The notes under the pieces: model-generated
Seen by the model: the letters and a program-made list of their open reading frames with translations, nothing else
Told to the model about the DNA's origin: nothing
Database searches by the model: none
Shown here: in pieces, positions 19,803 to 48,095 of the stretch
How positions within the stretch are numbered: position 1 is the stretch's first letter
How the letters are laid out: each line of letters begins with the position of its first letter
Assembly: GCF_039904985.1 (NCBI RefSeq)
Contig: NZ_CP157005.1
Span: 3,305,501-3,369,500 of the forward strand
DNA from: Methylomonas sp. AM2-LC
Lineage (GTDB): Bacteria; Pseudomonadota; Gammaproteobacteria; Methylococcales; Methylomonadaceae
Direction: 5' to 3'
DNA: 64,000 bases
Program-made: the position numbers and the translations under genes

Positions 19803-19990
19803 CATATCTCCTGCAGCGTTCGAGCAGTACTGGGTGTTTCCTGAACCTGTTTTTACCCCGGAAGCTTTTTGCCATGTATGGTGTGCATGCCTGTTAACTC
19901 AGGAAGCCTGATTACCTGGATTTGGTCTCCACTTGAACCTTCGGTTCAAGGACGAAAGTACGAGACGGCGCAGGCGGGAGATCCTGATTT
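19803..19990 (+). ncRNA. ssrS: 6S RNA
   Basis: About 185-nt RNA that binds sigma-70 RNA polymerase and damps transcription in stationary phase. The closing stem pairs ATCTCCTGC near the 5' end with GCAGGCGGGAGAT near the 3' end, the central region holds a large bulge, and the conserved hairpin ACTTGAACCTTCGGTTCAAG is present. Position directly behind zapA agrees with the family. No ygfA (fau) gene follows, unlike in enterobacteria. The ends are approximate. Confidence 0.92.
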
Positions 19991-39703: not shown

Positions 39704-39817
39704 GACAAAAACCCCACCCCAAGTAGACTCAGGGTTATGCCGAACATTTGCTAAATGTTTCGCAGCAGTCTATGGGGAATTTACTCAAAGTGGACTCTAA
39801 ATGAGAGGTTAAACTTA

Positions 39818-40102
39818 ATGGCAGCAGAAGTTCAGCGTACCGCCAGAATTGAAGCACGGATTACTCCAGATGCGCTTGCGCTTGTTCGTCGTGCAGCCGA
39901 GCTTAAAGGTTGCAGTCTGAGCGATTTTTTAGTGTCAGCTGCACAGAACGCAGCAGAAAAGGTTATAGAAGAAACCAATATCATCCGTTTATCAGCAGAA
40001 GATCAAATTCGTTTTGTTGAACTGTTACTCAATCCTCCAGCCCCATCGCCTGCTATTCTTAAAGCTTTTGAACATAACCACAAACTATTCGGCGTGGAAT
40101 GA
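39818..40102 (+). CDS. DUF1778 ribbon-helix-helix antitoxin (TacA/AtaR type)
   Basis: Antitoxin of 94 residues. The N-terminal ribbon-helix-helix (TARIEARITPDALALVRRAAELKGCSLSDFLVSAA) would bind DNA and autoregulate, and the C-terminal helix LSAEDQIRFVELLLNPP would block the toxin. The start at 39818 has GAGAGG in front; the frame is open upstream but lacks a usable site. The stop overlaps the toxin start as ATGA. Confidence 0.92.
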   Translation: MAAEVQRTARIEARITPDALALVRRAAELKGCSLSDFLVSAAQNAAEKVIEETNIIRLSAEDQIRFVELLLNPPAPSPAILKAFEHNHKLFGVE

Positions 40103-40599
40103 GTCCGCAGTACAGCATAGAACTGCTTGGTAGCAAACACCATCGAGCTGCTTTTTCTTGTGGTATAGAGGCGCTTGATCGTTACTTACGAGAACAGGCA
40201 AGTCAAGATATGCGCCGTCGAGCTAATTCATGTTTTGTTGCGGTTGACACTGTTACTTCGGCTTTGGCGGGCTACTATACCCTCTCTGCAGCTGGCATTC
40301 CATGCACTGATTTACCTGAACATCTGCTTAAAAAGCTGCCACGCTACCCTTTTGTACCCGTTGCACTACTGGGTCGCTTGGCGGTTGACAAAACTTTTCA
40401 GGGTAAAAATCTGGGCGCAGCCTTACTGGGTAATGCGATACAGCGTTCACTTCGCTCTGAGGTTGCTGTTGCCGCCATTGTCGTTATTGCTAAAAACGAG
40501 CAAGCGGAAAGTTTTTATCGGCACCATGATTTTCTGTTGTTTGGCAACCTACCTCGCCAGTTAATCTTACCGCTATCAAGCTATCGCCTTAACACATGA
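40099..40599 (+). CDS. GNAT toxin of type II toxin-antitoxin system (TacT/AtaT type)
   Basis: Acetyltransferase toxin of 166 residues that in characterised homologues acetylates aminoacyl-tRNA and blocks translation. The fold is clear: N-terminal FSCGIEALDRYLREQASQD, the acetyl-CoA loop GRLAVDKTFQGKNLGAALL and the C-terminal catalytic Tyr in ESFYRHHDF. All are intact, so it should be active. The gene overlaps the antitoxin by 4 bp, and the pair is flanked by direct repeats. Confidence 0.93.
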   Translation: MSPQYSIELLGSKHHRAAFSCGIEALDRYLREQASQDMRRRANSCFVAVDTVTSALAGYYTLSAAGIPCTDLPEHLLKKLPRYPFVPVALLGRLAVDKTFQGKNLGAALLGNAIQRSLRSEVAVAAIVVIAKNEQAESFYRHHDFLLFGNLPRQLILPLSSYRLNT

Positions 40600-41032: not shown

Positions 41033-41347
41033 TTATGCCAGCATTTCCAATAATACCGGATGCCATAGGCTTTCTTCAATTGCCCCCATCTTGCTTAACA
41101 ACCGACATTTATCAACTGCACGGATTTGATCCAATAAAATACGGGCATCACGGTTATCAAATTTGATTTGAGGACGGCAACCAAGTACTTGGCCTTTACT
41201 GGTGATTGGTGCGATGATTACCCTTGGTAAGGCTTTATTCATATCATCTGGTGAAACAATTAAAGCAGGACGCGTTTTTTGTATTTCTGTGCCAACAGTT
41301 GGGTCAAGATTAACCCAATATACTTCGCCGCGTTTTACCATTGCCAT
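41033..41347 (-). CDS. mazF: MazF/PemK-family endoribonuclease toxin
   Basis: Type II toxin of 104 residues with the SH3-like MazF fold: KRGEVYWVNLDPTVGTEIQK, TRPALIVSPDDMNK, VIIAPITSK and LLDQIRAVDKCRL are the family blocks. It would cut mRNA at short sequence motifs. The start overlaps the antitoxin end by 13 bp; ATG at 41341 is an alternative. It faces the end of the repeat at 40841-41026. Confidence 0.93.
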   Translation of the reverse strand: MAMVKRGEVYWVNLDPTVGTEIQKTRPALIVSPDDMNKALPRVIIAPITSKGQVLGCRPQIKFDNRDARILLDQIRAVDKCRLLSKMGAIEESLWHPVLLEMLA

Positions 41348-41571
41348 TCGTCATCAGCATCTGCTAGCGGTAACGAAGCAAACTCATCGACATCGTTTTC
41401 GGGTTGATATTGGTCAAACCAATTACTTCGCGGCGCTTTTATTGCTTCTATGACCAAGGTTTTACCTTCAACACGCAAATTAACTTCTTCACCCAATTCG
41501 CATGCTTCCAAAAATGCAGACGGAATAATGATACCGCGTGAGTTACCTATTTTTCTTAATTGGCTATGCAT
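41335..41571 (-). CDS. mazE: MazE-family AbrB-fold antitoxin
   Basis: Antitoxin of 78 residues with an AbrB/SpoVT DNA-binding start (MHSQLRKIGNSRGIIIPSAFLEA) and an acidic C-terminal tail that would wrap the toxin (PENDVDEFASLPLADADDEW). Start set at the ATG at 41571 behind GGAA; an open stretch upstream to 41634 contains its operator and is not coding. Confidence 0.92.
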   Translation of the reverse strand: MHSQLRKIGNSRGIIIPSAFLEACELGEEVNLRVEGKTLVIEAIKAPRSNWFDQYQPENDVDEFASLPLADADDEWQW

Positions 41572-41585
41572 TGGCTTTTCCAAAA

Positions 41586-41611
41586 AGTAAGTTATAACAA
41601 TGTTATTACTT
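41586..41611 (-). promoter_or_regulatory. Likely operator of mazEF
   Basis: ATAAC-AAT-GTTAT (41594-41606) nested within AAGTAA/TTACTT gives a palindrome directly upstream of mazE, the expected place for binding by the MazE-MazF complex. Confidence 0.5.
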
Positions 41612-41666
41612 TTAACAGAAAAAGCCAATAGCAAATTTTAACTTTAGCTAAATTACGCTACGAAAA

Positions 41667-41791: not shown

Positions 41792-43471
41792 TTAATGCGA
41801 AAAACTAACCTTTCTGCACTGCAAATGTTTAACCACACCCACCATACGATCAATTTCTTCGTAGGTGTTGTAAAACGCCAGCGAGGGTCTAACGGTGCTT
41901 TCCAGACCAAAACGGCGTAGGATGGGTTGAGCGCAATGATGACCGGCACGCACAGCTATGCCTTTTTCATTGAGAGCCTTACCGACATCCATAGTGCTAT
42001 GCCCTGCTAACACGAACGATAACACACTGGTTTTATCCGGTGCAGTCCCTATCAGTGTAACGCCGGGTATGCGTTGTAATGCTTGCATACCATACACCAG
42101 CAGTTCGTGTTCGTAGCGAGCCACATTTTCCAGACCAATTTTACTTAGGTACTGTAAGGCAGCACCCAAGCCCACTGCATCAGCAATATTACCGGTTCCG
42201 GCTTCAAACTTGGCAGGTGCGGGTTGGTAGACGGTTTTTTCGAAAGTGACATCTTCTATCATATTGCCGCCACCTTGCCAGGGCTGGGTAGCATCCAATA
42301 CTTCTTGTTTACCGTAAACCACACCAATACCGGTTGGGCCAAAAATTTTATGCCCGGAAAATACCAGCCAATCACAATCCAGTGTTTTTACATCGACACG
42401 AATATGTGACACCGATTGCGCACCATCCAACAATACCCGAGCGCCTACGGCATGGGCCATGGCGATCATTTCCTGAGCAGGTGTTACTGTACCCAGCGCA
42501 TTAGACACATGCGTAAACGACACCAGTTTGGTACGTGGATTAAGTAGTTTTTGATACTCGGACAAAATAACCTGACCTTGATCATCCACCGGAATAACCC
42601 GTAATAACGCGCCTGTTTCTGCACACAACTGCTGCCAGGGTACAATATTGGCGTGATGCTCTAACCAGCTAATGATGATTTCGTCACCGGCACTGATATT
42701 TTGCTTGCCCCAACTTTTTGCCACCAGATTAATGGCTTCTGTTGAACCGCGTACAAACACAATTTCGTTGACTGAACCTGCATTAATAAACTTGGCCACT
42801 ATATTTCTGGCTTCTTCGTAAGCATCCGTAGCCCGTGCTGCCAATTCGTGCGCAGCGCGATGAATGTTGGAGTTTTCATGCTTATAAAACTCAGAAATAC
42901 GATCTATTACCACTTGTGGTTTTTGCGTGGTCGCCGCATTATCCAGCCATGCTAAGGGATAGCCATTAACCCGTTCTTGCAGAATAGGGAAATCACGACG
43001 TACCAAATTAACATCAAACGCCGGGTGCGCCGCACCCAGGCCAGACAAAATGGGGTCGCGGCCTTGCTCTGTTACATCATTTAAAAAATAAAATGATGAA
43101 GCCGATGGCAAGCTCAGCGCACTGTATTGATTAAAATCAGCAGGCGACTTTATCGAGGACACCAAATCTGCTTTACCCGGCAAAGCAAAGCTTTGCTGTA
43201 CTAAAGCCGACAATGCTGATTCGTTAATGGCGGATACATCGCCCACACCCGCTGGCGTAAAGTTTGGTACCTGCGCAGAGGTTAGCTGACTTGTCGGCAA
43301 ACTCTCGATACTCGTAGGCAAACTTTCCACTCCGGCACTCTGATTAGGCAGTGCCGAAAAATACGCATTGGCCAGTTTGGTCAGCTCTTGAACATCCGGC
43401 AAGCCGGATGGTGCATCGCCAGCCAAAGCCTGGTGCACTAATCCCGACAAATCCAGATTATTTGTACTCAT
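41792..43471 (-). CDS. Cysteine desulfurase, encapsulin cargo (SufS type with N-terminal extension)
   Basis: PLP enzyme of 559 residues that takes sulfur from cysteine, leaving alanine. The catalytic part from about residue 155 is SufS-like: WLDNAATTQKP, PLP lysine Lys375 in VFSGHKIFGPTG, and the persulfide cysteine Cys513 in RAGHHCAQP. The first 150 residues are a low-complexity extension (LPTSIESLPTSQLTSAQVPN and similar) absent from ordinary SufS; in family 2A encapsulin systems such an extension anchors the enzyme inside the shell. The gene overlaps the shell gene by 14 bp. No sufBCD or sufE is near, which agrees with a dedicated storage role instead of Fe-S assembly. Confidence 0.93.
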   Translation of the reverse strand: MSTNNLDLSGLVHQALAGDAPSGLPDVQELTKLANAYFSALPNQSAGVESLPTSIESLPTSQLTSAQVPNFTPAGVGDVSAINESALSALVQQSFALPGKADLVSSIKSPADFNQYSALSLPSASSFYFLNDVTEQGRDPILSGLGAAHPAFDVNLVRRDFPILQERVNGYPLAWLDNAATTQKPQVVIDRISEFYKHENSNIHRAAHELAARATDAYEEARNIVAKFINAGSVNEIVFVRGSTEAINLVAKSWGKQNISAGDEIIISWLEHHANIVPWQQLCAETGALLRVIPVDDQGQVILSEYQKLLNPRTKLVSFTHVSNALGTVTPAQEMIAMAHAVGARVLLDGAQSVSHIRVDVKTLDCDWLVFSGHKIFGPTGIGVVYGKQEVLDATQPWQGGGNMIEDVTFEKTVYQPAPAKFEAGTGNIADAVGLGAALQYLSKIGLENVARYEHELLVYGMQALQRIPGVTLIGTAPDKTSVLSFVLAGHSTMDVGKALNEKGIAVRAGHHCAQPILRRFGLESTVRPSLAFYNTYEEIDRMVGVVKHLQCRKVSFSH

Positions 43472-44375
43472 GATACTTGCCTACTTCGACGTTCTCGAGT
43501 ACACCCAGCGCGTCGTCGGTCAAAATCGCCAATGAGCAATACAGTGATACCAGATATGAGGCAATAGCTTTGTGATTAATACCCATGAAACGCACCGACA
43601 AGCCCATGCTCAATTCGTCAGTTAAGTTTGGCTGATACAAACCCACTACGCCTTGACGGTTTTCACCCGTGCGCAGTAACAGTATATTGGTTTTGCCATC
43701 GACAATTTTCAGCTTGTCGGTAGGTATTAAAGGTAATCCGCGCCAGGTTAAAAACTGAGAACCGAATAAAGAAACGGTTGGTGGTGGTGTACCACGGCGA
43801 GTAGCTTCGCGACCAAAAGCAGCGATAGCACGCGGATGTGCCAGGAAAAAACCAGGCTCTTTCCAAACTCTGGCAATTAACTCGTCCAGATCATCCGGTG
43901 TTGGCGCACCTGTGCGCGGTTGTACTTTTTGAGACGCCACCACATTGTTCAACAAGCCATATTCAGCATTATTGAGTAATTCACTTTCCTGACGCTCTTT
44001 AACTGTTTCGATGGTCAGACGTAATTGCTCGTGGATTTGATTGTGTGGGCTGCTGTACAAGTCGGCAACGCGGGTATGCACATCTAATACGGTATTAACC
44101 GCATTCAAACGATATTCACGGCCCCATTCTTCGTAATCCACAAAAGTTTGTGGCAATACTTTTTCGTCCAGGCTGGAACAATCAACAGTAATGCTGGTTT
44201 CGCTTTTAACTTTGTTAACGCGATAAATACCCGCTTCGACTGGCACCCATGGTAACAGGTGTACCAGCCAACGCGGAGTAATACTGCCCATCATGGGCAC
44301 GGTTTTGGTCGCGTTCGATAAGGTACGTGCGGCGACATCGCCTAAAGCTGTATGGGCATCATGTATATCAGACAT
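43458..44375 (-). CDS. Family 2A encapsulin nanocompartment shell protein (SrpI-like)
   Basis: HK97-fold shell protein of 305 residues that self-assembles into an icosahedral compartment. It matches family 2A (cyanobacterial SrpI type): N-arm LGDVAARTLSNATKTVPMM, then GSITPRWLVHLLPWVPVEAG and IYRVNK, extended loop region DYEEWGREYRLNAVNTVLDVHTRV, and the C-terminal segment SMGLSVRFMGINHKAIASYLVSLYCSLA. No cyclic-nucleotide-binding domain, so not family 2B. Its neighbours, a desulfurase with a cargo extension downstream and SrpH-like and CysK genes upstream, are the known family 2A set. AAGGAAA lies before the ATG. Confidence 0.93.
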   Translation of the reverse strand: MSDIHDAHTALGDVAARTLSNATKTVPMMGSITPRWLVHLLPWVPVEAGIYRVNKVKSETSITVDCSSLDEKVLPQTFVDYEEWGREYRLNAVNTVLDVHTRVADLYSSPHNQIHEQLRLTIETVKERQESELLNNAEYGLLNNVVASQKVQPRTGAPTPDDLDELIARVWKEPGFFLAHPRAIAAFGREATRRGTPPPTVSLFGSQFLTWRGLPLIPTDKLKIVDGKTNILLLRTGENRQGVVGLYQPNLTDELSMGLSVRFMGINHKAIASYLVSLYCSLAILTDDALGVLENVEVGKYHEYK

Positions 44376-44415
44376 TTTATTTTCCTTTTCTAGTGTTGAT
44401 GGGATTTAATTAGTT

Positions 44416-44428
44416 GCCGCAAAGCGGC
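44416..44428. other. Tight hairpin between serine acetyltransferase and shell genes
   Basis: GCCGC-AAA-GCGGC in the 184-bp gap. On the operon strand it lies about 40 nt before the shell start with no T-run after it, so it is more likely an mRNA 5'-stabilising or processing structure than a terminator; followed by TTTTT only on the other strand. Confidence 0.4.
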
Positions 44429-44559
44429 GTTTTTAGTCATACAAAAATCTCATAAGTGCGAATCCATTGCCTGATAAACCTGTGGAAGCAGCTTTTTGCC
44501 TTTCGTAGTCTGCTGGGTTTGGCAAACAACTTGCCATTGCCCAAAAAAACATAGAAAAA

Positions 44560-45486
44560 CTAAATGCCGCCACCACTTTCAAACATTTCATTTCGCACCT
44601 GTGCCTGGCTAATATGGCTACCGGGCGGTACGCTATGGGTCAACCAGACATTACCACCGATGGTAGAACCACAACCAATGGTAATTCGCCCCAATATAGT
44701 GGCTCCGGCGTAGATAACCACATCATCTTCTACAATGGGATGTCGGGCATTACCCTTTACTAGCATCCCATTTTCATCTTTAGCAAAACGTTTGGCACCC
44801 AGTGTCACGGCCTGATACAACCGTACCCGGCTACCAATGACCGCTGTTTGCCCTATTACCACTCCAGTACCATGATCGATAAAGAAGCTATCGGCTATTT
44901 GCGCCCCAGGATGTATATCTATACCGGTAACGGAATGTGCTATTTCGGCAATTACTCTAGCCACCAAAGGCGCACCCAACAAATACAACTGATGAGCAAT
45001 ACGATGGTGAAATATTGCGATAATGCCTGGATAACAAATCAGCACTTCATCGGGGCTGCTAGCCGCTGGATCGCCTTCAAATGCTGCTTGAATATCACTC
45101 TCTATCAAAATTCTGATAGCGGGCAAACGCCTAGCAAAGTCGCGGGTAATCTGAGCAGCTTCAACACGCGTATCAGCTACCCTGCCCTGCTGTTCGGCAA
45201 TAAACTTCAATTCCAAACCAATTTGCTTATCAAGCTGGCGTAACACACCATCCAGGGTTTGACCAACAAAATAATCAATGCCCTCTGCATTTAGATCGGG
45301 TAAACCCAAGCGGTTTGGAAATAATGCCGCGCCCAGATTATCAACAATATTACTTAATACCTTGCTAGACGGCAGTTTGGGAGGCTGTTCTTGCCGCTGC
45401 CTATTTTCCAGGGATTTATTGCGTAAATTACGCAACTCAGCCACTAAAGCATCTAACCCCCAATGCTTTGTTTCACTCAAACTCAT
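44560..45486 (-). CDS. Serine O-acetyltransferase (SrpH/EpsC-like)
   Basis: Makes O-acetylserine from serine and acetyl-CoA, the first step to cysteine. Residues 1 to about 170 are helical; from about 175 a left-handed beta helix of hexapeptide repeats follows ([32 protein letters not shown]) with catalytic His205 in FFIDHGTG. The C-terminus ends MFESGGGI; a terminal Gly-Ile is what docks into the CysK active site in the cysteine synthase complex. The start overlaps the cysK stop as ATGA. Length 308, closer to SrpH of sulfur-regulated loci than to housekeeping CysE. Confidence 0.9.
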
Positions 45487-46460
45487 ACAGCTACGCCTTG
45501 CAAGTCAAACAAGCCTTCGAACAATGCAGAGCTTAAATAGCGTTCGCCAGAATCGGGCAAGATAACCACGATGGTTTTACCCTCATTCTCTGGGCGCTTG
45601 GCAACCCGTATCGCCACTGACACAGCCGCTCCACAGGAAATACCAGCCAAGATGCCCTCTTCCTTAGCCAGACGCCGGGCATAACTAATTGCCTCGTCAT
45701 TGCTTACCAGCTCTATCTGATCCACCAGCGATAAATCCAAAACATCGGGTACAAACCCGGCACCAATCCCCTGTATTTTATGCGGAGCTGGCTTCAATTC
45801 CTCACCCGCACGTGCTTGTGTCAACACAGGGCTGGATTCTGGCTCCACAGCGATGGAAACAATGGCTTTGCCTTGCGTTTGCTTGATATAGCGCGAAATA
45901 CCCGTAATAGTACCGCCCGTACCTACTCCCGATACCAGAATATCTATGGCACCATCGGTATCATTCCAAATTTCTGGCCCAGTGGTTTGAAAATGGATGA
46001 GTGGATTAGCCGGATTTTTAAACTGTTGTAATAATACATAGCGGTTTGGATCAGAAGCGGCAATTTCTTCGGCCTTAGCAATAGCGCCTTTCATGCCTTT
46101 TGCACCTTCTGTCAACACCAGCTTGGCACCATATGCCACTAACAACTTACGTCGTTCCACACTCATCGTATCGGGCATGGTTAAGGTTAACGGTATTCCA
46201 CGCGCCGCCGCCACAAACGCCAAGGCAATACCGGTATTGCCACTGGTGGGCTCTATAATTTCTTTACCCTCGCCCAACAAACCACGCTGTTGAGCATCGT
46301 TAATCATAGCCGCACCAATGCGGCACTTTACCGAATAGGCTGGATTTCTACCTTCCACTTTTGCCAGTAAGGTGACAGGTGCGCCTTCTGTAATGCGATT
46401 AAGGCGAACTAGTGGAGTATTACCTATCGATTGTGAATTATCTGGGAACCAATGAGCCAT
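45483..46460 (-). CDS. cysK: Cysteine synthase A
   Basis: O-acetylserine sulfhydrylase, a PLP enzyme that joins O-acetylserine and sulfide into cysteine. Motifs: [12 protein letters not shown] lysine near residue 45 in [34 protein letters not shown] and GISCGAAV. Start set at the ATG at 46460, eight bases past AAGGA; an ATG at 46466 is too close to it. First gene of the operon with the serine acetyltransferase, shell and desulfurase, so cysteine would be produced next to the compartment that strips its sulfur. Confidence 0.95.
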
Positions 46461-46473
46461 GTGCATATTCCTT

Positions 46474-46522
46474 CAAAAAAAAGCCAAAAACCTGCCTCGA
46501 GGGCATAATTGGCCTCCGGCAG
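46474..46522 (-). terminator. Attenuator-like hairpin in the leader of the encapsulin operon
   Basis: On the minus strand CTGCC-G-GAGGC pairs with GCCCTC-GA-GGCAG around the loop CAATTAT (46492-46522), followed by GTTTTTGGCTTTTTTTT. This is a strong intrinsic terminator ending 14 nt before the cysK start. No gene lies upstream on this strand, so it would act on the operon's own transcript. An overlapping stem GCCAA/TTGGC and an upstream CCGG-act-gCCGG hairpin offer alternative folds. Confidence 0.6.
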
Positions 46523-47175
46523 TCCGGTCAGCATTATGGCAAACTATGTTGCTGGTGTTAAGGTACTTGCTTGTTTAAAAACTGTCAAGATTAAGAATTT
46601 AAATAAACCAAGCATTTATTACATAATTAGATAATTAAATCTAAAAATATGATAACTAATGTTGTTTTTTAACATTTAAACTAAGCCGACTATATGTATA
46701 ACATTGATTTACAATACATATTAAGTTTGTTATATTCATCATATGATATTTACAGATATTCTCTTTAATTATTATCATAATAATTAATTTTTATTTGTTT
46801 TTCATATAGTTATACACGAATCTAACATAATCTTATTATTAGGTATTTTTATTGTACAAAGCTCTCAAAATCGCTATTTTTTACTCAATTGCCACCTGAT
46901 TATTTGTAAAAACATTAAAAATAATATGAGAATTATTCTGCCGTGATTGACTTACCACTACCAATGTCTTCGACGTCTTTTAGAAAAACATCACACGGCG
47001 CAGCATTTTAAAGCCCTTTACAGGTAAATTCAGTCAATTCATAAACGACTAAATTGATTAAGAAAACTGTCTGTATACTGACATTTTGTCGGCACTTAAA
47101 CACCAGAAACAAAAAATCACATTGACAAATTTCTGAAACTTTATAGAATACACGGTTTATCTACTTCGATAGATT
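46523..47175. other. A/T-rich intergenic region upstream of the encapsulin operon
   Basis: About 650 bp with no credible gene; 46600-46930 is strikingly A/T-rich, by eye near 80 %. It must contain the operon promoter on the minus strand and the tRNA-Leu promoter on the plus strand. Several TATAAT-like sequences are present but none can be singled out. Such DNA would attract H-NS-type proteins; inference. Confidence 0.5.
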
Positions 47176-47262
47176 GCCTCGGTGGCGAAATAGGTAGACG
47201 CACGGGACTTAAAATCCCGCGCCTGAAAGGGCGTACCGGTTCGATTCCGGTCTGAGGCACCA
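47176..47262 (+). tRNA. tRNA-Leu (anticodon TAA)
   Basis: An 87-nt class II tRNA, GCCTCGGTGGCGAAATAGG to GGTCTGAGGCACCA, with anticodon TAA in GGACTTAAAATCC, long variable arm and encoded CCA. Its last 40 nt and its terminator are repeated at 48329-48409. Confidence 0.97.
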
Positions 47263-47448: not shown

Positions 47449-47691
47449 ATGAACTTGCCTATAACTATTTATCAACACAGCCTAAATCTCTCAGAATCTG
47501 CTGCTCGCGAGGCTCTGGACTTTATAGAATTTCTGGAACAACGTTATTCAAATGTTCAGCCACTTTTGAAACAGCAAAACGCCACCGAAATGTTTTTGGC
47601 AAAATTGGCTGGCGGGTTAAGTGAAGATTTTCCTGATGTCATTAGCGATAATGACCTAGGATCTGATGCATGTCGCGAGACACTTGACTGA
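47449..47691 (+). CDS. VapB-like antitoxin (DUF2281 type)
   Basis: An 80-residue acidic protein that ends at the ATG of the PIN toxin (one shared base). Its middle, SAAREALDFIEFLEQRY, resembles the helix of DUF2281 antitoxins. No clear DNA-binding motif beyond a short N-terminal strand. Identity rests on size, acidity and position in front of the toxin. The ATG follows GAGGAAATAATT. Confidence 0.75.
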   Translation: MNLPITIYQHSLNLSESAAREALDFIEFLEQRYSNVQPLLKQQNATEMFLAKLAGGLSEDFPDVISDNDLGSDACRETLD

Positions 47692-48095
47692 TGACATATT
47701 TACTCGACACCAATGCTGCCATTGCGTTGTTGAAAGAAAATCCCCAGTTACTAAAACATATCCGTCGCGTCGGCATTACGAAATTACACATCTGTGCGCC
47801 AGTCGAAGCCGAATTGTGGTACGGAGTAGCAAAAAGCACTCTACAAGAACAGAATAGGATACGTCTATGCACCTTGTTGGAATGGATACCATGCCTACCC
47901 TTTGCTGGCCCAGCAACACAACATTTTGGTGAAATAAGAGCCTATTTGGCCAGCCAAGGTACACCGATCGGACCATATGATTTGCAGATTGCAGCCATTG
48001 CTATAGCCAATGGCTATACTCTTGTCACGAATAACACCCGAGAATTTGAACGAGTACCTGGCTTAAAATTGGAGAATTGGATCACACCAACATAA
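47691..48095 (+). CDS. vapC: VapC-family PIN ribonuclease toxin
   Basis: Toxin of 134 residues with an intact PIN domain: first acidic site LLDTNAAI, second PVEAELWYG (Glu), third GPYDLQIAAIAI and fourth VTNNTREFERVPGL. Magnesium-dependent cleavage of initiator tRNA or rRNA is the role of characterised relatives. With its antitoxin it fills the space between tRNA-Leu and the displaced tRNA-Leu 3' fragment. Confidence 0.93.
   Translation: MTYLLDTNAAIALLKENPQLLKHIRRVGITKLHICAPVEAELWYGVAKSTLQEQNRIRLCTLLEWIPCLPFAGPATQHFGEIRAYLASQGTPIGPYDLQIAAIAIANGYTLVTNNTREFERVPGLKLENWITPT

What the first reader, a model, noticed from the sequence alone, without database searches (positions are those of the whole stretch)
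41792..46522. Complete family 2A encapsulin sulfur-storage operon
cysK, SrpH-like serine acetyltransferase, HK97-fold shell and an N-terminally extended cysteine desulfurase lie in one operon, with ATGA and 14-bp overlaps. The order gives a full route serine to O-acetylserine to cysteine to stored sulfur inside a protein shell. Family 2A systems are known from cyanobacteria and other bacteria; both cysteine-making enzymes packed in front of shell and cargo make this a self-contained sulfur-sequestering module.
Basis: partly seen in the sequence, partly recalled or inferred. Interest (0 to 1): 0.88.

Follow-up and report, generated by a model that had tools for sequence, protein, structure and literature searches.

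The report
Sulfur-shell operon behind an RNA switch
The genes are a genuine protein-shell (encapsulin) operon for handling sulfur in a methane-eating bacterium, and just in front of them lies a small, uncatalogued RNA leader that recurs in related methylotrophs mostly before sulfur genes and looks like a switch for a sulfur regulon.

Summary
In detail: cysK, an SrpH/EpsC-type serine acetyltransferase, a shell and an N-terminally extended cysteine desulfurase lie in one minus-strand cluster with the stated overlaps; shell and desulfurase pass NCBI's family 2A models. As an encapsulin operon it is ordinary: 31 of 80 named relatives carry cysK in it. "Self-contained" is too strong: sulfide comes from elsewhere and the genome has other CysK/M and CysE genes.

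The new part is a leader RNA just before cysK (46475-46534): a GCU-GA-CCGG-ANNA-CCGG-A-AGC hairpin sharing bases with an intrinsic terminator. A covariance model trained only on encapsulin-operon leaders finds it in 60 of 151 genomes of the window's family (E<=0.01), in a second Methylococcales family and in 37 of 100 genomes of a Methylophilaceae family. Away from shells it mostly precedes sulfur genes (cysJI, cysK, FadL/sulfur transport, OsmC, rhodanese) or a sigma-54 activator. No Rfam family reaches its threshold there. Best reading: a transcription attenuator tying sulfur storage and cysteine synthesis to one sulfur signal. Ligand or binding protein is unknown; nothing was measured.

The parts
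41792..43471 (-). family 2A encapsulin cargo: SufS-type cysteine desulfurase with a ~150-aa N-terminal region (LTKLANAYF, FYFL strings)
   Evidence: NF041166 893 bits, cut-off 800; PDB 8kg1, 613 bits
43458..44375 (-). family 2A encapsulin shell protein (SrpI-like)
   Evidence: NF041162 525.5 bits, cut-off 380; PDB 6x8m SrpI, 488 bits
44376..44559 (-). 184-base gap between SAT and shell; no leader copy seen here, whereas L033, L034 and L036 carry a second leader copy at this place
44560..45486 (-). SrpH/EpsC-type serine O-acetyltransferase ending in ...GGGI
   Evidence: (NF041874 155.6, cut-off 150)
45483..46466 (-). cysK, O-acetylserine sulfhydrylase
   Evidence: TIGR01139 454, cut-off 351
46475..46534 (-). 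conserved leader RNA: antiterminator-like hairpin, then terminator stem and T8; ends 8 bases before the cysK start codon
   Evidence: own-genome E 1.4e-8; 51.8 bits; the window leader is one of the 45 training rows
46512..46532 (-). P0/P1 hairpin GCU-GA-CCGG-ACUG-CCGG-A-GGC; its 3' bases 46512-46514 also belong to the terminator's 5' arm
   Evidence: P0 is inferred
46475..46515 (-). terminator stem-loop and T-run
   Evidence: predicted fold, not unusual against shuffles, z about -1.3
46560..46588 (-). sigma-70-like promoter TTGACA-17-TACCTT
   Evidence: 9 of 12 matches

Best explanation
A family 2A encapsulin operon of a Methylomonas-type methanotroph, preceded by a premature-termination leader. 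Shown by sequence: family 2A shell and cargo, SAT and cysK in front, a conserved structured leader. Inferred: RNA polymerase starts at a sigma-70 promoter, makes a ~21-nt hairpin (P0 GCU/AGC, internal loop GA/A, P1 CCGG-ANNA-CCGG), then reaches a terminator whose 5' arm uses the same AGC bases, so P0 and the full terminator exclude each other. A sulfur-status signal (small metabolite or RNA-binding protein) acting on the hairpin decides between termination and read-through into cysK-SAT-shell-desulfurase. The same leader before cysJI, FadL/sulfur-transport genes, OsmC, rhodanese and a sigma-54 activator would make one sulfur regulon. SAT and CysK then make cysteine (the SAT's GI tail suggests a cysteine synthase complex) and the encapsulated desulfurase takes sulfur from it for storage or transfer.
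For: Encapsulin. Leader: on 45 encapsulin-operon leaders 94.7% of cells pair, 11 of 16 pairs change on both sides, 0 of 500 shuffles reach this; RNAalifold finds the same two helices unaided. On 104 leaders P1 occurs as CCGG/CCGG, CCAG/CTGG, CTGG/CCAG, CCGA/TCGG, CCTG/CAGG and CTAG/CTAG. Context outside the training operons: of 64 hits at E<=1e-6 in 151 family genomes, 45 lie within 6 kb upstream of a shell; of the other 19, 8 precede a sigma-54 activator, 4 cysJI, 3 cysK, 1 an ExbB-like operon, 3 run into contig ends. Second Methylococcales family, all 20 hits at E<=1e-6 read: 11 cysK first, 2 shell first, 2 OsmC (L237 with FadL and PF04143), 1 rhodanese ORF, 2 FadL, 2 in tandem before putative secreted proteins. 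Methylophilaceae family: 20 of 44 rows fetched, 18 encapsulin operons, 2 FadL, one followed by PF04143. Class sample: only own and one same-order genome of 369 at E<=1e-6. Promoter-like sites upstream of 57 of 94 leaders, 3.5 expected.
Against: No expression, termination or binding data. P0 rests on near-invariant columns shared with the terminator: 3 compensated C-G, 6 unpaired; 6 of 104 leaders have a P1 mismatch; for P0+P1 on A3 the covariation score (0.078) is matched by one slid control (0.080). The window's leader is not unusually stable (26 of 200 and 20 of 200 shuffles as good), and its stepwise fold passes through another pairing at 43-52 nt. Not general: pattern hits in 63 of 112 sources, and 6 of 11 genomes reached through encapsulin loci, among them three Nitrosomonas and one named Methylophilaceae, have no hit at E<=0.1. 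The ExbB-like, FadL-only and secreted-protein targets are not proven sulfur genes, and the sigma-54 activator has no match to a named sulfur regulator. The class sample did not pick up the Methylophilaceae that carry the leader, so it cannot bound the range. Rows weaker than E 3e-4 were not followed.
Confidence: 0.78

Rival explanations
1. An ordinary family 2A encapsulin operon; the leader is only an intrinsic terminator of an upstream or spurious short transcript (perhaps a small RNA) and does not switch the operon.
For: Terminators are common; the window's own hairpin is not unusual energetically; no expression data.
Against: The ~24 bases before the terminator are nearly invariant in three families, P1 shows paired changes, the element follows promoter-like sites and recurs in the same orientation before different sulfur genes.
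Confidence: 0.12
2. Version A of the best explanation: a metabolite-binding riboswitch; the GA/A internal loop and ANNA loop bind a sulfur metabolite (O-acetylserine, cysteine, a persulfide or similar) directly.
For: Internal loop GA/A in 99 of 104 leaders and loops mostly starting with A; two complete copies in tandem in L239; coherent sulfur targets.
Against: At 21-24 nt it would be among the smallest aptamers (recalled); no ligand evidence.
Confidence: 0.35
3. Version B of the best explanation: a protein-bound antiterminator; an RNA-binding protein stabilises the P0/P1 hairpin, as BglG/LicT proteins do on their targets.
For: Geometry of ribonucleic antiterminators (recalled): a short hairpin with an internal loop overlapping the terminator's 5' arm.
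Against: No CAT_RBD domain in the own genome, while 4 of 14 control genomes ring; no other candidate protein was sought.
Confidence: 0.4
4. The palindrome CCGGnnnnCCGG is a DNA operator for a repressor, not an RNA structure.
For: It is a 12-bp inverted repeat just downstream of promoter-like sites.
Against: Paired changes alter the half-site but keep pairing (CCTG/CAGG, CCAG/CTGG, CTAG/CTAG); fixed junction with the terminator stem.
Confidence: 0.07

Closest known systems
Synechococcus elongatus SrpI/CyD family 2A encapsulin (PMC8049743; abstract and passages seen)
   Same: Shell and N-terminally extended SufS-type desulfurase cargo with both motif types; PDB SrpI is the best structure match. 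That shell and cargo rise on sulfate starvation, in line with a sulfur-regulated leader.
   Different: The words srpH, cysE and cysK do not occur in that paper's main text, and no leader RNA is mentioned in the passages seen; different phylum.
Family 2A cysteine desulfurase operons surveyed in PMC8346489 (passages seen)
   Same: Serine O-acetyltransferases and rhodaneses named as most enriched accessories; cysteine synthase named as the next step.
   Different: No regulatory leader in the passages seen.
SAM riboswitches and other sulfur attenuators of Rfam
   Same: Some act by premature termination before sulfur-metabolism genes (recalled).
   Different: No Rfam family reaches its gathering score at the leader; a SAM-II match in the region is on the other strand at E 10.
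BglG/LicT ribonucleic antiterminator (recalled)
   Same: Small hairpin with an internal loop overlapping a terminator.
   Different: No CAT_RBD protein in the own genome; other sequence and targets.

Membership tests
Family 2A encapsulin shell | Shell passes the family 2A model and beats family 2B and phage heads | tested here: met
   525.5 bits (cut-off 380), 2B 425.8, phage head family 26 bits
Family 2A encapsulin shell | No cyclic-nucleotide-binding domain | tested here: met
   305 aa; SrpI-like is the only Pfam family matched
Family 2A encapsulin shell | Self-assembling icosahedral particle | not testable with these tools
   needs purification and EM; the structure job was unfinished
Family 2A cargo cysteine desulfurase | Passes the cargo model; N-terminal targeting motifs | tested here: met
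   NF041166 893 bits, cut-off 800, matched from residue 70; LTKLANAYF and FYFL in the window. In relatives: strict patterns 28 and 55 of 59 desulfurases, looser ones 53 and 70 of 75
Family 2A cargo cysteine desulfurase | Encapsulated and active | not testable with these tools
   biochemistry needed
Cis-regulatory attenuator RNA | Conserved structure with covariation, joined to a terminator, 5' of genes | tested here: met
   P0 part weaker
Cis-regulatory attenuator RNA | Two mutually exclusive folds | tested here: inconclusive
   24-nt hairpin is the predicted minimum in 83 of 96 leaders; P0 covariation thin
Cis-regulatory attenuator RNA | Signal-dependent read-through | not testable with these tools
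   no expression data
Known Rfam riboswitch or leader | Match at the gathering score | tested here: not met
   window and L061, L119, L176, L279, L237; permissive search of 191 bases gave chance-level hits only
BglG/LicT antiterminator target | CAT_RBD protein in the genome | tested here: not met
SfnR sulfur regulator (for the sigma-54 activator) | Match to SfnR | tested here: inconclusive
   NCBIfam and database names give only generic sigma-54 regulators; resemblance to SfnR is recalled

The most novel reading that the evidence does not exclude
The leader is a new riboswitch class of methylotrophs with a ~21-24-nt aptamer that senses a sulfur metabolite and co-ordinates encapsulin sulfur storage with cysteine synthesis, sulfite reduction and sulfur import.
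Probability: 0.35. Interest if true: 0.85.

Novelty: new variant of a known kind. Interest (0 to 1): 0.62.

Why it matters
When and why cells fill family 2A encapsulins with sulfur is open. A shared leader RNA points to the genes that may be switched together with the shell (cysK-SAT, sulfite reductase, sulfur import, rhodanese, a sigma-54 activator) and makes the signal directly testable. If the RNA binds a metabolite it would be a new, very small riboswitch class; if it binds a protein, a new antitermination factor.

Tried and rejected
Leader peptide: the 20-codon ORF MLTGLPEANYALEAGFWLFF over the window's leader has no Cys codon, and leaders of relatives differ in length; judged by eye, rejected. 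Known Rfam element: none at the gathering score, only chance-level hits in the 191-base region. Three identical pattern hits on contig C3 lie inside a transposase-like ORF (by eye) in a repeated segment. From 5 genomes I first thought Methylophilaceae carry the leader only at the encapsulin operon; (37 of 100 genomes) and the FadL contexts corrected that. The three marginal class hits (L203-L205) and L253 showed no sulfur gene that I could recognise by eye. SfnR identity of the sigma-54 activator could not be shown (the Variovorax record has no annotation there). Literature: searches listed nothing that I recognised as this leader; only four papers were opened, each by passages (PMC8346489, PMC8049743, PMC2965389, PMC12407261). 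The paper on elemental sulfur in an Acinetobacter family 2A shell is recalled, not seen.

How genes were named: hmmscan was run on the window's proteins, L119, L167, L176, L121, L122, L180, L202, L237, L245, L239, L119, L121 and L279. Other loci were named by tblastn against those or by eye, including L243 (OsmC), L246 and L277 (FadL) and most sigma-54 and cysJI cases. In L172 the cysK frame is interrupted.

Rows dropped: for the training alignment L037 (cut short by my extraction) and L041_2473 (unrelated) were left out, L112 (the window cut short) was replaced by the full window leader, near-identical rows were thinned and the two own-genome non-encapsulin leaders L113 and L117 were held out. 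L001-L031 largely repeat L032-L111, so the census uses the 80 named loci (the best 80 of 564; more exist). The 20 regions were chosen by score plus second hits, not at random. A5 leaves out 12 sources of A3 to stay at 100. Own-genome hits at E 0.006 and weaker were not read, except L122.
Full report
What is there. The minus strand of 41792-46466 carries cysK (45483-46466), a serine O-acetyltransferase of SrpH/EpsC type (SAT, 44560-45486), a family 2A encapsulin shell (43458-44375) and a cysteine desulfurase of 559 aa (41792-43471). The shell scores 525.5 bits against NCBI's family 2A model (cut-off 380), 425.8 against 2B, and 26 bits against the one phage head family matched; its best solved relative is SrpI. 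The desulfurase passes the family 2A cargo model (893 bits, cut-off 800). Its N-terminus holds LTKLANAYF and FYFL, like the two motifs LARLANEFFS and AASPYYFLDG reported for SrpI cargo (PMC8049743, passages). With strict patterns 28 and 55 of 59 desulfurases of relatives show them, with looser ones 53 and 70 of 75.

How common the operon is. Among the 80 named loci kept, 31 have cysK-SAT-shell and 65 have a SAT upstream of the shell; some contigs are cut. In the window's family 96 of 201 genomes have a shell match, 93 over the cut-off. The genus is inferred to be Methylomonas because contigs of same-genus handles have the lengths of named Methylomonas records (192115, 3673651 and 5360835 bases). 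The own genome also has two more CysK/M-family genes and one CysE over the cut-offs, so the operon's set is an extra one, and the sulfide it needs is made elsewhere. The SAT ends in GI, the tail that docks into CysK in known cysteine synthase complexes (recalled); 28 of 30 SATs in operons with cysK end so, against 5 of 28 without (sorted by hand, not corrected for descent).

The leader. The sequence upstream of cysK in relatives shows a shared element, CTGACCGGACnnCCGGARGCC followed by a terminator; with up to 3 mismatches it occurs in 63 of 112 sources, a few hits off target. In the window it is 46475-46534. An alignment of 45 leaders from encapsulin operons supports two helices, P1 and the terminator stem: 94.7% of cells paired, 11 of 16 pairs changed on both sides, 0 of 500 shuffles as good. 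An unguided consensus fold gives the same helices. A covariance model from these (R1) was used for all later searches, so hits outside encapsulin operons are independent of training.

Where else it occurs. Own genome: three strong hits, namely the window (E 1.4e-8), one before a sigma-54 activator (1.7e-12) and one before an ExbB-like operon (2.0e-8). A weak hit (E 0.77) beside a second CCGGACAACCGG lies before a porin-like ORF and a sulfate-binding protein; I do not count it. Family: 60 of 151 genomes at E<=0.01. Of 64 hits at E<=1e-6, 45 lie within 6 kb upstream of a shell on the same strand; of the other 19, 8 precede a sigma-54 activator, 4 cysJI, 3 cysK (one with an interrupted frame), 1 the ExbB-like operon, and 3 run into contig ends. 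CysJ and CysI were confirmed by family models in L176. Order: 50 of 121 genomes at E<=0.001. In the second Methylococcales family all 20 hits at E<=1e-6 were read: 11 before cysK (in L235 only a fragment), 2 before a shell, 2 before OsmC (L237 continues with FadL, PF04143 sulfur transport and DUF6691), 1 before a 67-residue rhodanese ORF, 2 before FadL, and 2 in tandem before putative secreted proteins. Three weaker hits of that family were also read: L251 and L252 precede cysJI, L253 no sulfur gene. Methylophilaceae family: 37 of 100 genomes at E<=0.001; 20 of 44 rows fetched, 18 before SAT-shell-desulfurase or the shell and 2 before FadL, one followed by PF04143. Class: 5 of 369 genomes at E<=0.001, of which only the own genome and one of the same order reach 1e-6; since this thin sample did not catch the Methylophilaceae, other carriers may exist. 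Of 11 genomes reached through encapsulin loci, 5 have the leader and 6, three of them Nitrosomonas, have no hit at E<=0.1.

Mechanism. The first 24 nt fold alone into ..(((..((((....)))).))). in 83 of 96 leaders, with internal loop GA/A in 99 of 104. The last three paired bases of this hairpin also belong to the terminator stem. In a stepwise fold of L061 the hairpin forms at 24 nt and is replaced at 48 nt when the terminator closes; in the window another pairing appears at 43-52 nt before the terminator forms. That is broadly the geometry of a transcription attenuator. P1 has paired changes of several kinds and a mismatch in 6 of 104 leaders. P0 has three compensated cases and six unpaired ones, and one slid control equals the P0+P1 covariation score on A3, so P0 is inferred. 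A promoter-like site lies upstream in 57 of 94 leaders, 3.5 expected from letter shuffles. Most recognised targets are sulfur assimilation, import and storage genes, so a sulfur signal is the natural reading; S. elongatus raises its family 2A shell on sulfate starvation (PMC8049743, abstract and passages). Whether the hairpin binds a metabolite or a protein is open; the BglG/LicT RNA-binding domain was not found in the genome.

Verdict. The finding as given is a sound but ordinary family 2A operon. The surprising part is the leader, for which no Rfam family reached its threshold and which I did not recognise in the listings of searches. Its function is inference from conservation and context.

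Noticed in passing
window 41033-41634 (-): MazE/MazF-like toxin-antitoxin pair directly downstream of the operon.
   Followed up: no
window 39755-40599 (+): Two overlapping ORFs that look like a DUF1778-type antitoxin and a GNAT acetyltransferase toxin (by eye, no family search).
   Followed up: no
window 47691-48095 (+): VapC-like PIN-domain toxin some 430 bases from tRNA-Leu (47176-47262).
   Followed up: no
window 19805-19984 (+): 6S RNA gene.
   Followed up: no
L241 (second Methylococcales family): Leader followed by two tandem family 2A shell genes and a desulfurase; the first shell copy matches in two pieces, so its frame may be broken.
   Followed up: partly
L239 and L086: Similar-looking pairs of putative secreted proteins (one tested, no Pfam family), behind two tandem leaders in L239 and behind the desulfurase in L086.
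   Followed up: partly
L235: A cysK match of 122 codons is followed at once by a desulfurase match directly behind the leader, as if the middle of the operon were lost.
   Followed up: no
G000 contig C3 (L120, L123, L124): Three identical stretches spaced about 20 kb apart on a 134-kb contig, with transposase-like genes.
   Followed up: no
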